Source: Actinomycetes bacterium (GTDB lineage: Bacteria; Actinomycetota; Actinomycetes; Nanopelagicales; Nanopelagicaceae). Taken from it: 55,992 nucleotides of DNA. Shown in pieces: positions 6,243 to 39,414 of this stretch (the stretch's first letter is position 1; every line of letters starts with the position of its first letter). Below the pieces are notes generated by a model. That model saw nothing but the letters and a program-made list of their open reading frames with translations, had not been told where the DNA came from and made no database searches. The stretch is from positions 1-55,992 of the forward strand of contig JANYDL010000078.1 in the NCBI GenBank assembly GCA_025363635.1. Reading direction: 5' to 3'. The position numbers and the translations under genes are program-made.

Positions 6243-6974
6243 ATGAGTCTTTACCGTGACCAGGCGGTGGTCCTGCGAACTCACAAGTTGGGCGAAGCAG
6301 ATCGCATCATCACAATGTTGACTCGTGAGCATGGTCGAATCAGAGGCGTTGCCAAAGGTGTTCGCAGAACAAAATCAAAATTCGGCGCCCGACTTGAGCC
6401 AGGCAGTCACGTCGATATACAGCTCTATGTTGGAAAAACTTTTGACACCATCACACAAGTTGAAGCGATCGAAAATTATGGGGAGTCGCTGACGCATGAT
6501 TATCAGAGGTGGACCATTGCCTCCGCAATTTTGGAAACGGCAGAGCGTTTTACCTCCCAAGAACATGAACCCGCCCTGCAGGAATACCTACTTGTCGTTT
6601 CTGGATTGAAAGCGCTCGCTGAGAGCGCTCATGATCCCTCACTCATTCTCGATGCATTTCTTCTGCGATCTCTTGCGATTGGGGGCTATGCCCCTTCCAT
6701 GACTATCTGTTCGCGTTGCGAAAAACCTGGTCCGCACAAATATTTTTCACTCGTTGGTGGGGGCAGTGTCTGCATGGAATGTCGACCGTCAGCCAGTGCG
6801 ATGCCGGCACCAGAGACACTTGCCCTCATGGCTGCGCTCTTGAGCGGAGAGTGGAATATTGCAGACGCTAGTGTGGGAAAAGTTCGTCGTGAAGCCACTG
6901 GCTTAATCGCTGCATATTTGCAGTGGCATCTGGAACGTGGACTGCGAAGCCTTCCATTGGTGGAGCGGGCGTGA
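6243..6974 (+). CDS. recO: DNA repair protein RecO
   Basis: Recombination mediator that, with RecR, loads RecA on SSB-coated DNA. The start at ATG 6243 gives 243 residues, beginning [20 protein letters not shown], the standard RecO OB-fold N-terminus; the frame is open to 6189 inside leuA but that part is not homologous. The C-terminal part has a four-cysteine zinc motif (CSRC ... CMEC, about 156-178). The gene starts 22 bases after leuA, and its TGA lies inside the GTGA start of uppS, so the two are translationally coupled. Confidence 0.93.
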
Positions 6975-7726
6975 TTCGTAAACCGACTCCTCATCTATCG
7001 GGGGAAAAACCACCCGTGTTACCACCGGGCCAAATTCCTCGTCACGTGGCCCTTGTCATGGATGGTAACGGACGCTGGGCCCAAGAGCGTGGACTGCCTC
7101 GAACTGCAGGTCACGAAGCAGGGGAGGCGGCTCTTTTTGACGTCGTCGAAGGTGCAATCGAAATTGGCATCAAAGAAATTAGCGCTTTTGCTTTCTCGAC
7201 TGAGAATTGGCGCCGCTCGCCCGAGGAAGTGAAATTCCTGATGGGCTTTAATCGAGATGTCATTCGACGCCGACGAGACGAGATGAATGAAATGGGTGTG
7301 CGAGTCAGATGGGTGGGGCGTCCGAAGCGATTGTGGAAGAGTGTGATTGACGAGCTTCAAGCGGCGGAAGAGTTGACCGCGAAAAACAAAGTTCTGACCT
7401 TGAATATGTGTGTGAATTATGGAGGCCGCGCGGAAATTGTTGATGCCGCGGCCGCATTGTCGCGAGATGTGCAGGCGGGAAAAGTGAAACCTGATGCCAT
7501 CAACGAAAAAGTTTTCGCGCGTTACCTCGATGCACCTTCAATGTCGGATGTTGACCTTTTTCTTCGAACTTCCGGAGAATTGCGCACGAGTAATTTCCTA
7601 CCATGGCAATCGGTTTATGCCGAGTTTGTCTTCATGGATGTCTTATGGCCAGATGTTGATCGCAGGGTGTTGTGGCGCGGTATAGAAGAATATTCACAAC
7701 GGAACAGGCGGTTTGGAAAGGCATAG
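6971..7726 (+). CDS. uppS: cis-prenyl (decaprenyl/undecaprenyl) diphosphate synthase
   Basis: Condenses isopentenyl diphosphate in Z configuration to make the polyprenyl carrier lipid for the cell wall. The GTG at 6971 overlaps the recO stop and gives 251 residues. Catalytic aspartate D31 lies in [12 protein letters not shown]; later [21 protein letters not shown] and [15 protein letters not shown] are diagnostic. recO-uppS adjacency is the usual actinobacterial order, where this copy corresponds to the long-chain Z-prenyl synthase (Rv2361c-like). Chain length cannot be determined by eye. Confidence 0.93.
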
Positions 7727-7854
7727 TGGTGGATATGCAGAACGAAAAAGTAAAGCGAAAAAGCCCAAAAAAGCCGAAATAGCACTGTGGCGTAAACATA
7801 GTGAGAGTGGTAGATGGCTGAGTAATCCCCTACGATAGCCAAAGGAGGTGGTCC

Positions 7855-8508
7855 ATGAAGTTGGCGCGTGTAGTTCGTGCGGTTCCGACGGATTCCGCCG
7901 ACTCTTTCCACGTCGAGCCTCGTCGGCGAGAAATTGAGCACATCCCTGGCGCAGTCGTTCTGAGAAAATCTCGCTTCTACCCCATTATCATTCTCATTAC
8001 GCTCATGGTTGCATCGGGCTTTTACTACGTGGCCAACACTCATTCTGTGGCTACAACTGCGACCTTTAACGCCGATGCAGTTCAAGGAAAAGTTGCACTG
8101 ACAGGAGCCGAACTCCGTCAGGTAGTCCTTCAAGAAGGCATCACCGCTTATTGGGTCGGTCCAGATCCCGGTTCCAAATATGCGCTCAGTGTTTTAGCCG
8201 ATGGGCAGGTGTACGTGAGATATCTTCCTGACGGCAAAGGGCTAAGTGATAAGAAGGCCGCGTATAAAGTCGTCGCGACATATGTCACTGCCAATGCTTT
8301 TGCCAAGACTCGAGACGCCGCGACTGCCGTAGGGAGCGTGGGATTTGTCGATGCTGATGGAAATGCTATTTATTACGCCAGCGCTCGCGCTACAAATGTC
8401 TACATTGGACTCAAAGACCTGGATCTTCAATTAGAGGTCTTCGATCCTGTGGCAGGCAAAGCTATTCTCGCTGCTAGGACCTCTGGCATGGTACGTAAGA
8501 TCGTTTAG
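7855..8508 (+). CDS. membrane-anchored protein of unrecognised family (copy A)
   Basis: Not recognised. 217 residues: a cytoplasmic, charged N-terminus (1-40), one membrane segment (about 42-60, FYPIIILITLMVASGFYYVA) and an outside domain of about 150 residues. The outside domain has AYWVGP (99-104), GSKYALSV (106-113), YLPDGKGLSD (123-132) and VGFVDADGN (162-170). The same order of motifs occurs in the genes at 8791 and 38782, so this is a paralogous family. A strong ribosome site, AAAGGAGGT (7841-7849), precedes the ATG. The 128-base gap after uppS shows only a weak TACGAT at 7831-7836 that could be a -10 box. The function could involve the cell envelope; nothing in the sequence settles it. 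Confidence 0.75.
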   Translation: MKLARVVRAVPTDSADSFHVEPRRREIEHIPGAVVLRKSRFYPIIILITLMVASGFYYVANTHSVATTATFNADAVQGKVALTGAELRQVVLQEGITAYWVGPDPGSKYALSVLADGQVYVRYLPDGKGLSDKKAAYKVVATYVTANAFAKTRDAATAVGSVGFVDADGNAIYYASARATNVYIGLKDLDLQLEVFDPVAGKAILAARTSGMVRKIV

Positions 8509-8790
8509 ACGCCGGAGATTTCTCCCGTAGCGAATTTTTTCCTCCGATTTGGGTGTGACTAAGCCCACAATGGTCTGAACAGCGATTCTTACAAGGTACA
8601 CTTATGTACACGAGGTCTATTTTTTTTGCTGTAAAATTTTTTACGGTCGTTTCCTTTGTGAGGTGCCGCGGCACACTGGCAATGAGGATCACGCGAGTTC
8701 TATCTCCTTGAACCTACTTAGGTTCATTAAGAAGGCGGTCTTCAGACCACACATGCCGATTTGAACATGAAAGCGGGCTGATTAAAAGTC
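8509..8790. other. 282-base gap packed with short inverted repeats
   Basis: No gene is seen. Short hairpin-capable repeats follow one another: GGAGA/TCTCC (8514-8525), TGGG/CCCA (8550-8567), GTACA/TGTAC (8596-8609), then a T8 run (8620-8627), GTAAAA/TTTTAC (8631-8644), the perfect palindrome GTGCCGCGGCAC (8663-8674), GAACCTA/TAGGTTC (8710-8725) and GGTCT/AGACC (8737-8748). The first hairpins plus the T8 run could end transcription of copy A; the rest would lie in the 5' region of copy B, as a structured leader, a small RNA or protein sites. Confidence 0.4.
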
Positions 8791-9393
8791 GTGTCGGATT
8801 ACGGGATTAGGGAGATTGTTGGCGATTTCAAGCCAAAAAAGCGACGAAGTATTCGCTCTGCAATTCCCTATTTAGTGACCGCCCTTATTTTTTCAACAAT
8901 CAGCTTCTCGGTGACTTATGTGATCAACCAGAAGCAGCGCGCCAAAGAGGAAATTTTGCTTGTTGTGCATGGCGGTAAAGCGGTAGATGAAGCTGAGTTG
9001 CGGAAAATCATCAACTCCAAGAAACTCAACGTGTACTGGGTTGGTCCTGAAAAAGGGATGAAGTATGTTCTCAATGCTGCCGTCACCAGCAGTATCTCTC
9101 TACGTTATTTACCAGAAGGCGCTGCCCTTGGTGATAACAAAGTGAATTTTCGTGAAGTTGGAACATTCGTCTCGCCCAACGCTTTTAAAGTGACTCAGCA
9201 AGCCGCCACCCAAGAAAATGGGGTTGGTTTTGTCAATGTCGATGGTCAAGCGGTGTATTACGACTCAAGAGATCCCAAGAATGTTTATCTTGGAATTAAG
9301 GATGCGGATATCCAAGTTGAAATATTCGATCCTCGGCCGGATCAATCGTTGGCCGAGGCACTTATGCAAGGAAGAGTTCAAAAGATTAAATAG
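8791..9393 (+). CDS. membrane-anchored protein of unrecognised family (copy B)
   Basis: Paralogue of the gene at 7855. 200 residues, starting at a GTG with no strong ribosome site. Charged N-terminus, one membrane segment (about 25-46), then the outside domain with VYWVGP (81-86), GMKYVL (89-94), YLPEG (106-110) and VGFVNVDGQAVYYDS (145-159), and a closing part KNVYLGIKDADIQVEIFDP that matches copy A closely. Copies A and B are more alike than either is to the copy at 38782. Lies 282 bases after copy A and ends 12 bases before the convergent zur gene. Role unknown. Confidence 0.72.
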   Translation: MSDYGIREIVGDFKPKKRRSIRSAIPYLVTALIFSTISFSVTYVINQKQRAKEEILLVVHGGKAVDEAELRKIINSKKLNVYWVGPEKGMKYVLNAAVTSSISLRYLPEGAALGDNKVNFREVGTFVSPNAFKVTQQAATQENGVGFVNVDGQAVYYDSRDPKNVYLGIKDADIQVEIFDPRPDQSLAEALMQGRVQKIK

Positions 9394-9405
9394 GTAGGTC
9401 TGCCT

Positions 9406-9771
9406 CTAGCAGTTAGAGCAGATGCCGAAAATTTCTGCGCTATGCCCGACCTCTCGAAAACCATAATGAGCTGCTTCTTGTAAAGCCCACTTTTCAATCT
9501 CCCCGCCTTCAATTTCAACGGTGCGTCCACATTTTTTACAGACTAGGTGATGATGATGGGCATCACCACATACACGATAAATTGCTTCCCCGTCGTCACG
9601 TCGGAGAATATCCACAATATTTTCTTTGATTAAGGCTTGAAGACCCCGATAAACAGTGGTCAGCCCAATGTTTTTGCCATCTCGAACCATTGCTCTATGT
9701 ATTTCTTGAGCGCTCGCGAAACCTCCGACATGCTCGAGAGTCGAGAGGATTCTCTCTCCCGACTTATTCAT
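9406..9771 (-). CDS. zur: zinc uptake regulator, Fur family
   Basis: 121-residue Fur-family repressor. The start at 9771 overlaps the zupT stop as ATGA; the frame is open ten codons further but that start would lie inside zupT. N-terminal winged helix (1-65, with LTTVYRGLQALI), a histidine-rich metal site (DAHHHHLVC, 70-78) and structural zinc cysteines CKKC (78-81) and CSNC (118-121). Zur rather than Fur is inferred from co-transcription with a ZIP zinc transporter and the Zur-type box upstream. Zinc-loaded Zur should repress its own operon. Confidence 0.88.
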   Translation of the reverse strand: MNKSGERILSTLEHVGGFASAQEIHRAMVRDGKNIGLTTVYRGLQALIKENIVDILRRDDGEAIYRVCGDAHHHHLVCKKCGRTVEIEGGEIEKWALQEAAHYGFREVGHSAEIFGICSNC

Positions 9772-10514
9772 CCCTGACCGATCAGCGCAACCACAACCCA
9801 CATAATCAATACTCCAAAAATCGTGGCCACCATGGTCAGACGTGAGGGATGGCGTGAGTGAGCTTCCGGAAGAATATGAGAGGTTGCTAAATAAATGATG
9901 AAACCAGAAAATACCGCTAGATAGATTGCCAAATATGGTTTGCTGATGACAATGTAGGTGCCTAGGGCTGCACCGCTGATGCGCATCAGAGCATCCAGAC
10001 TTAAAAGAGAGATAGCCCGCCTAGACCAATGTCCACTCTTGACAAGAAAAGAGACTGTGTTGAGCCCGTCGCTAAAAGCGTGAGCGAGAACTGCTATAAA
10101 GACGGCGAGGCCGAGGGTATTGCTGATATGAAATGCCAAACCAAGAGCCACGCCATCAAGAAAAACGTGGCCGCCCATAGCAACTGCTCCCACTGTTCCA
10201 GCAATGGTCGCCCTGTGTTGATGTTCGTGGCCGTAGTCAGATTCTGCCGGCTCATGGGATCCCAGCAATTGTTCGGCAAAGTGCAATCCCAGAAAACCCG
10301 CAACGAAGGCGAGTGAAACGCTTGGAACATGCCAAAGAGTCTTTGTGCTGAGAGAGAAAACTTCAGGTAAAAGGTCAAAAGAAACCAGACCAAGGAGAAG
10401 TCCCGCGGCCAAGCCCAGCGTGAGATGGAGACGATCCCGCGAACGAATCGCAAGATAGCCACCTGCAGATGTGGCTACCGCAGAGAGAGCCGCCAGGGGG
10501 ATAGCGAAGTTCAT
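9768..10514 (-). CDS. zupT: ZIP-family metal transporter (zinc uptake)
   Basis: About 248 residues from ATG 10514, with about eight membrane segments. The membrane metal motif HAFSDGLN in one helix and GGHVFLDGVALGLAFH in another hold the histidines and aspartates used for metal passage. A His-rich loop (YGHEHQH) before them is typical of ZIP proteins. First gene of the zupT-zur operon. The frame stays open to 10577, but the ATG at 10514 is preferred because TACCCT lies 6 bases before it and the Zur box lies just beyond. Another divalent metal is possible but less likely given the regulator. Confidence 0.88.
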   Translation of the reverse strand: MNFAIPLAALSAVATSAGGYLAIRSRDRLHLTLGLAAGLLLGLVSFDLLPEVFSLSTKTLWHVPSVSLAFVAGFLGLHFAEQLLGSHEPAESDYGHEHQHRATIAGTVGAVAMGGHVFLDGVALGLAFHISNTLGLAVFIAVLAHAFSDGLNTVSFLVKSGHWSRRAISLLSLDALMRISGAALGTYIVISKPYLAIYLAVFSGFIIYLATSHILPEAHSRHPSRLTMVATIFGVLIMWVVVALIGQG

Positions 10515-38781: not shown

Positions 38782-39414
38782 ATGCTACCCTCGGCTGTGA
38801 CACTTGATTCGGAGAACAAGCCCGATTCCGAGGTTCAAGAAAGTAAGGTCCATCGCTACAGTCGCGAGCATCCGCACTTTGTACGAAATTACGTTTTTTC
38901 AATCGCACTTGCCCTTCTCCTCGGAGTCCTACTCTTTTACTTCGTCGGCGGGAGTGAGTCAGCCGAGGAGGAGCAGTTGAATCGGGTTTCGGGTGCCGTA
39001 ACGCTCTCCGAGGCACAACTTGTCAACGCGGTGAAATCTGCAGGTGCTGTGGCTTACTGGCTCGGACCAATCTCTGGTAGCAAATACACCCTCGTCATTT
39101 CCAAAAAGGGCGAAGCGATCGTTACCTATCTTCCTAACGGAGAAGGAATTGATAATCAAAAGGAGCATCGTCTCATTGTAAAGACGAATACGAAGATCGA
39201 TTCGGTTGGACCTTTGACCTCTTCGCAGACAGAGGTAAGCAATGTCAATGAGTCCACCCCGAGTGGGGCTTACTATTCTTATGATCCCTATCTTCCAGAT
39301 CACGTGGTGATTTCTTTGCCAAATAAAGGTGGTCACGTTCGTATTTATTATCCCACGAGGAGATCACCAAACTATATTGCCTTAGATGCAGAATCTCTCA
39401 TTCTCATTTCTTAA
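38782..39414 (+). CDS. membrane-anchored protein of unrecognised family (copy C)
   Basis: Third paralogue of the family at 7855 and 8791, 210 residues, about 30 kb away. Charged cytoplasmic N-terminus (1-35), one membrane segment (about 36-56), a short acidic linker, then AYWLGP (91-96), GSKYTLVI (99-106) and YLPNGEG (116-122). The second half is diverged: only GAYYSYDP, the VVISLP strand and a final VRIYYP remain. Stands alone between the pullulanase and the flavin dehydrogenase; no ribosome site is apparent. Function unknown. Confidence 0.7.
   Translation: MLPSAVTLDSENKPDSEVQESKVHRYSREHPHFVRNYVFSIALALLLGVLLFYFVGGSESAEEEQLNRVSGAVTLSEAQLVNAVKSAGAVAYWLGPISGSKYTLVISKKGEAIVTYLPNGEGIDNQKEHRLIVKTNTKIDSVGPLTSSQTEVSNVNESTPSGAYYSYDPYLPDHVVISLPNKGGHVRIYYPTRRSPNYIALDAESLILIS

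What the first reader, a model, noticed from the sequence alone, without database searches (positions are those of the whole stretch)
7855..9393. A three-member unrecognised membrane-anchored family
Two adjacent genes (7855, 8791) and one remote gene (38782) share one membrane helix and a common outside domain with [AV]YW[VL]GP, G[SM]KY, and YLP[DEN]G in the same order. Three copies in a compact genome argues for real, separated roles. I cannot match the domain to any known family by eye.
Basis: seen in the sequence. Interest (0 to 1): 0.5.

Follow-up and report, generated by a model that had tools for sequence, protein, structure and literature searches.

The report
Membrane partner of collagen-like surface proteins
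The three genes belong to an undescribed family of membrane proteins with an outward-facing domain; in related bacteria the family often sits right beside genes for collagen-like proteins, which suggests, but does not prove, that it holds or builds collagen-like fibres on the cell surface.

Summary
In detail: the three proteins are related (BLASTP E 6e-43, 4e-17, 4e-12) and no curated family claims them. But the genome has nine copies, not three, and 10 of 21 genomes of the genus carry 2-12 copies each. AlphaFold2 models of P0001 and of the P0003 domain share one layout; the nearest solved folds (DIP2269, RseB/MucB, Tsi3, PsbP) all score Z under 8.

The lead lies outside the window. Where related genera carry a single copy, 13 of 14 copies abut a collagen-like (Gly-X-Y) gene on the same strand. 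In Thermoleophilia 11 of 34 loci have one within 500 nt (about 0.45 expected); in the window's genus 12 of 55 (about 1.5 expected). Best explanation (0.5): a membrane-anchored socket or assembly partner for secreted collagen-like proteins, multiplied in this genus. Against it: the window's own three copies have no collagen neighbour and fall in two clades that nearly lack one, and 11 congeners have collagen-like genes without the family. Their role is therefore inferred. Nothing was tested at the bench.

The parts
7855..8508 (+). P0001, family member, 217 aa, first gene after uppS
   Evidence: 39% identical to P0002 over 175 aa
7978..8082 (+). predicted long helix of P0001 (residues 42-76), taken to hold the membrane span
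   Evidence: AlphaFold2 model m6671b3a7e4b6; membrane span by eye
8104..8505 (+). outside alpha/beta domain of P0001 (residues 84-217), order H-EEE-H-EEEE-H, block pLDDT mostly 91-98
8791..9393 (+). P0002, family member, 200 aa; its orthologues sit at the same site in congeners
38782..39414 (+). P0003, family member of the second deep clade, 210 aa, between a pullulanase-like gene and an lldD-like gene (names by eye)
38965..39411 (+). outside domain of P0003 (residues 62-210), mean pLDDT 85.8, same order as P0001 plus two short strands
6923..7726 (+). uppS-like gene (name by eye), left border of the family's site
9406..9801 (-). Fur/Zur-like gene (name by eye), right border of the site, convergent

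Best explanation
The family is a single-span membrane protein with a short inner tail and one compact alpha/beta domain of about 145 residues outside (two or three in some relatives). I infer that its original work is to hold or assemble an exported collagen-like (Gly-X-Y) protein at the outer face of the membrane: the collagen-like partner has no recognisable C-terminal anchor of its own and would dock by an end onto the domain. In the window's genus the gene was multiplied. Some copies stayed beside collagen-like genes; others, among them the three in the window, sit alone and probably serve another fibre or ligand. Shown: homology, copy number, predicted layout, gene linkage, purifying selection. 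Inferred: orientation and export, contact between the partners, and any role of the window's three copies.
For: Single-copy genera: 13 of 14 loci overlap or lie within 17 nt of a collagen-like frame, 9 with it upstream and 4 downstream, all on the same strand. Thermoleophilia: 11 of 34 within 500 nt, 0.45 expected, binomial 4e-13. Window's genus: 12 of 55, 1.5 expected, 0 of 1e6 simulations; without the two whose neighbour is a LuxR-type regulator with a collagen insert, 10 of 55, 4e-6. The link thus recurs in two classes. Collagen neighbours show no LPXTG and no C-terminal stretch over Kyte-Doolittle 1.67. In this family of bacteria 15 of 21 adjacent collagen-like proteins with a readable end carry a two-cysteine end module, against 0 of 18 not adjacent. 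A sortase (Pfam 1.6e-29) lies beside the pair in L218. Collagen segments per genome are more numerous in the 10 congeners with the family than in the 11 without (2-27 against 2-5; p 0.013).
Against: The window's three copies have no collagen-like frame within 4 kb and lie in own-genus clades of 22 rows with none and 27 rows with one. 43 of 55 own-genus and 23 of 34 Thermoleophilia loci have none within 500 nt. All 21 genomes of the genus have collagen-like genes but only 10 have the family; two of 29 Thermoleophilia genomes with the family have no collagen match. Non-adjacent collagen-like proteins lack a C-terminal anchor too, so that trait does not set the pair apart. The two-cysteine module was sought after seeing the ends, is absent in 0 of 3 other own-genus neighbours and 0 of 11 Thermoleophilia neighbours (that is, none has it), and 15 of the 20 control loci come from genomes without the family. 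Loci are related, so the tests overstate. No background was measured for the single-copy genera.
Confidence: 0.5

Rival explanations
1. Free-standing surface receptor or adhesin: the outside domain binds a lipid, glycan or peptide ligand by itself; collagen-like neighbours are merely other surface genes in the same loci.
For: 43 of 55 own-genus loci have no collagen-like frame near. The nearest solved folds include small stand-alone envelope proteins: DIP2269 Z 6.3 and 6.2, TP0453 5.5, Apa 5.0 and 4.6. Site-bound copies are conserved between congeners.
Against: 13 of 14 single copies are tightly joined to collagen-like genes, more than a loose surface-gene neighbourhood explains. Fold scores are all under 8.
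Confidence: 0.2
2. Envelope sensor or co-regulator: the outside domain detects a signal and acts on a regulator, as RseB/MucB act on an anti-sigma factor.
For: A LuxR-type regulator cluster (11 genes) lies near the family at 9 loci (GerE confirmed by Pfam in the 3 tested). An ECF sigma and a zinc-finger anti-sigma gene lie beside copies in L083, L090 and L104. RseB/MucB are among the top fold rows, Z 6.2-5.2.
Against: Most loci have no such regulator nearby; regulators may simply control the gene. The fold rows are tied with many others under Z 8.
Confidence: 0.2
3. Immunity protein against a wall-targeting toxin (Tsi3-like), which would explain many divergent copies.
For: Tsi3 scores Z 6.0 and 5.1; copies are many and divergent.
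Against: No toxin gene was recognised in the neighbour sets that were looked at, though no toxin library was searched; the fold match is weak.
Confidence: 0.05

Closest known systems
DIP2269 of Corynebacterium diphtheriae (PDB 3v7b)
   Same: Best structural row for both models: Z 6.3 (112 aligned, 4.2 A) and 6.2 (119 aligned, 4.1 A).
   Different: 7-11% identity, Z under 8; common descent is not shown. I know of no collagen link (recalled).
RseB / MucB
   Same: Outside-facing envelope domain; RseB residues about 218-316 align at Z 6.1 and 5.8; some family copies sit beside ECF sigma and anti-sigma genes.
   Different: RseB/MucB have a further large domain (recalled; the match covers only the end of a 260-residue chain). 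The window proteins have one domain.
PsbP/Mog1-like proteins (PsbP, Tsi3, SciW, Apa; the grouping is recalled)
   Same: Several rows of this kind recur in both lists, Z 3.8-6.0.
   Different: No sequence match; Z in the range of common arrangements.
Streptococcal Scl collagen-like proteins
   Same: Collagen-like region displayed on the surface.
   Different: Scl carries its own C-terminal wall-anchoring motif (PMC8968730, passage seen). Here no such motif was found in the adjacent collagen-like proteins and the proposed anchor is a separate gene.

Membership tests
Any Pfam-A or NCBIfam family | whole-protein score over the family's curated cut-off | tested here: not met
   None for P0001, P0002, P0003. 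Among 35 members the only strong matches are histone-like families in 3 members (Pfam HC2 2e-6, NCBIfam Rv3852 4.5e-9), which I take to be their lysine-rich tails.
PHROGs phage families | match at E 0.001 or better | tested here: not met
   best E 0.084 over the three proteins
PsbP/Mog1-like fold | structural match at Z 8 or more | tested here: inconclusive
   best rows of this kind Z 6.0 (Tsi3) and 5.2 (PsbP); nothing over 6.3
RseB/MucB | two-domain architecture (recalled) | tested here: not met
   the models show a helix and one domain
Collagen-like proteins | Gly-X-Y repeats in the protein itself | tested here: not met
   no Gly-X-Y runs in the three sequences; the link is by neighbourhood in relatives only
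The collagen-partner group proposed here | collagen-like gene within 500 nt | tested here: not met
   no collagen-like frame within 4 kb of either window locus; met by 13 of 14 single-copy relatives
The collagen-partner group proposed here | physical contact with a collagen-like protein | not testable with these tools
   needs binding or deletion experiments

The most novel reading that the evidence does not exclude
A two-part surface-fibre system of Actinomycetota: a separately encoded membrane socket and an anchorless collagen-like protein that docks on it by its end (in one group through a two-cysteine end module). In one genus known from lake and groundwater MAGs the socket was multiplied to as many as twelve copies placed under different regulators, and collagen-like linkers were even built into some of the neighbouring LuxR-type regulators.
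Probability: 0.35. Interest if true: 0.65.

Novelty: new variant of a known kind. Interest (0 to 1): 0.5.

Why it matters
Bacterial collagen-like proteins are known, but the well-studied ones carry their own anchor (passage in PMC8968730). A conserved, separately encoded membrane partner would be a different way of displaying them, and the gene pairs listed here make it directly testable. It would also give a first functional handle on an undescribed domain present nine times in a 1.85 Mb genome.

Tried and rejected
Mobile origin: no match for P0002 in phage or plasmid records by tblastn, nor in IMG/VR with A3 or P0002. A tie to uppS: of 20 congeneric uppS loci, 9 are followed by family genes, 5 directly by the Fur/Zur-like gene, 4 by another ORF (serine-hydrolase-like by eye) and 2 end with the contig, so uppS looks like a border, not a partner. 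Foldseek alone: best E 0.098 and 0.024 in the PDB, 0.057 in BFVD. Two marginal phylum hits, G207 and G153 (E 6e-4 and 8e-4, inside frames of 826 and 1331 aa), were not taken as members. The idea that only family-adjacent collagen-like proteins lack a C-terminal anchor failed: controls lack it too. Names for the downstream genes (signal-peptidase-like, MotB-like) stayed under cut-offs. Six literature searches listed nothing that I could see on this family or on such a partner; only listings were seen, plus one passage of PMC10202952 and passages of PMC8968730, and the library holds open-licence papers only. Promoter and terminator scan of 7500-9500: 1 and 3 sites against 2.0 and 2.0 in shuffles.

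Rows dropped: 7 of 74 hits shorter than 160 aa or fragmentary were left out of the alignment behind the trees; L171, a second fragment of one uppS, was left out of the UppS tree; 2 of 20 control loci had no complete 3' end, and of 23 adjacent loci given to L021 (end cut) was not examined and L098 gave no ORF; L075 and L097 were not given to it.

Full report
Observation. BLASTP gives E 6e-43, 4e-17 and 4e-12 between them. None reaches a curated cut-off in Pfam or NCBIfam; PHROGs give nothing better than E 0.084; a profile of 18 members finds no PDB sequence better than E 0.96.

How many. A profile of the three finds nine loci in the genome: three in the window, two on contig 63, one each on contigs 16, 14, 7 and 94. 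Among 60 related genomes 10 have the family: the window's own and 9 of 20 congeners, 2-12 matches each; with that profile none of 16 representatives of other genera of the family and none of 23 class-mates had it. A broader profile finds it in 24 of 296 genomes of the order: 10 of the genus, and 14 with one match each in three other genera. In the class of G437 it is in 29 of 299; I call that class Thermoleophilia because two of its contigs match, by length, named Solirubrobacterales records. Some proteins carry the domain two or three times in a row. A draw of 396 genomes of the phylum with the narrower profile gave 5 matches, own genome and two marginal ones included.

Structure. AlphaFold2 gives P0001 a mean pLDDT of 87.5, mostly 91-98 by blocks in the domain, and the P0003 domain 85.8. 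Both run H-EEE-H-EEEE-H; P0003 has two more short strands. Foldseek has no convincing match. The second look by VIA-align gives largely the same short list for both models: DIP2269, RseB/MucB, BT_1490, TP0453, Tsi3, TM1622, PsbP and Apa, with no Z over 6.3. This hints at a PsbP/Mog1-like or RseB-like sandwich; it does not show membership.

Descent. In a tree of 72 rows P0001 and P0002 lie on one side and P0003 on the other side of a 100/100 split. Copies cluster by genomic site: nine changes among six site labels, against 26 in shuffles. The UppS tree puts the 10 genomes with the family and 10 without it on two sides of one branch, 97/94 (one genome had no UppS match). At the uppS site 9 of 20 genomes carry family genes, 5 nothing, 4 another ORF, and 2 end there. 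dN/dS is 0.04-0.14 in the 4 of 10 pairs that could be computed.

Collagen link. Some own-genus copies lie beside long Gly-X-Y proteins (Pfam Collagen 5e-54 and 9.8e-7 in the two tested). Loci within 500 nt of a frame with ten or more triplets: 12 of 55 in the genus, about 1.5 expected. Nine of the 12 have the collagen frame upstream on the same strand, one downstream, and two are divergent LuxR-type regulators that carry a collagen insert. In Thermoleophilia 11 of 34, about 0.45 expected. In the single-copy genera 13 of 14, overlapping or within 17 nt between stop-to-stop frames, always on the same strand (eight triplets; no background measured there). Loci are related, and contigs 16 and 63 may be one locus, so they are not independent draws. 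On a tree of 113 rows the collagen label needs 12 changes against 32 in shuffles; the window's copies fall in own-genus clades of 22 rows without a collagen neighbour and 27 rows with one.

Against. All 21 genomes of the genus have collagen-like genes, but only 10 have the family, and two of 29 Thermoleophilia genomes with the family show no collagen match. Most loci in both classes have no collagen frame near.

Partner proteins. No LPXTG was flagged and no C-terminal stretch exceeded Kyte-Doolittle 1.67 in the adjacent collagen-like proteins; controls reach 1.68, so they do not differ. In this family of bacteria 15 of 21 adjacent ones with a readable end (5 of 5, 0 of 3 and 10 of 13 by group) carry a two-cysteine end module, against 0 of 18 controls and 0 of 11 in Thermoleophilia; the pattern was written after seeing the ends, and most control loci come from genomes without the family. 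L218 has a sortase beside the pair.

Reading. A tight, same-strand pair of a membrane-anchored outside domain and an exported collagen-like protein, recurring in two classes, is best explained by a socket or assembly partner for the fibre (0.5). For the window's three copies this is inference from relatives. A free-standing receptor (0.2) or a sensor (0.2) remain open: several copies sit beside LuxR-type or ECF sigma genes.

Noticed in passing
L075:3873-4844 (-), L097:5567-6547 (+): LuxR-type regulators with a collagen-like stretch between the N-terminal part and the helix-turn-helix (L075: Pfam Collagen 1.4e-10 and GerE 2.3e-7; L097 read by eye), each divergent from a family gene.
   Followed up: partly
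L119:1404-2243, L121:1853-2677, L122:5548-6426: Family members with a long KKAPAKK-like inner tail; three of 35 members match histone-like families, presumably these three.
   Followed up: no
L119:2284-3591, L122:6461-7761, L217, L226, L227, L229: After collagen-like gene and family gene come two further conserved genes; the second (about 171 aa) looks MotB-like by eye, with only E 0.076 and 0.13 to MotB_plug in two and no match in three others.
   Followed up: partly
L022:2832-3653, L082, L088, L095, L098, L103: A conserved membrane gene follows the collagen-family pair at six own-genus loci; only the L095 copy hints at signal peptidase S26 (E 0.019-0.057, below cut-offs).
   Followed up: partly
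window 7727-9405; L161, L164, L165, L166: The stretch between uppS and the Fur/Zur-like gene is a variable cargo site: family genes, nothing, or a serine-hydrolase-like ORF (by eye) in different congeners.
   Followed up: partly
L127:6597-8933, L128:6735-9041, L129:1846-4173: In Solirubrobacterales loci the family gene is followed by a conserved 769-779 aa, seemingly multi-span protein without a convincing Pfam match (L127 tested).
   Followed up: no
L104:6157-6402 (G018 contig 80): A family copy with an in-frame TGA: a decaying copy or an assembly error.
   Followed up: no
G000 contigs 16 and 63 (L021, L020): Both contigs end inside a collagen-like frame on matching strands; they may be two ends of one locus broken at the repeats.
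   Followed up: no
L218:3264-3860: A sortase gene (Pfam 1.6e-29) directly before a family gene and a collagen-like gene.
   Followed up: yes
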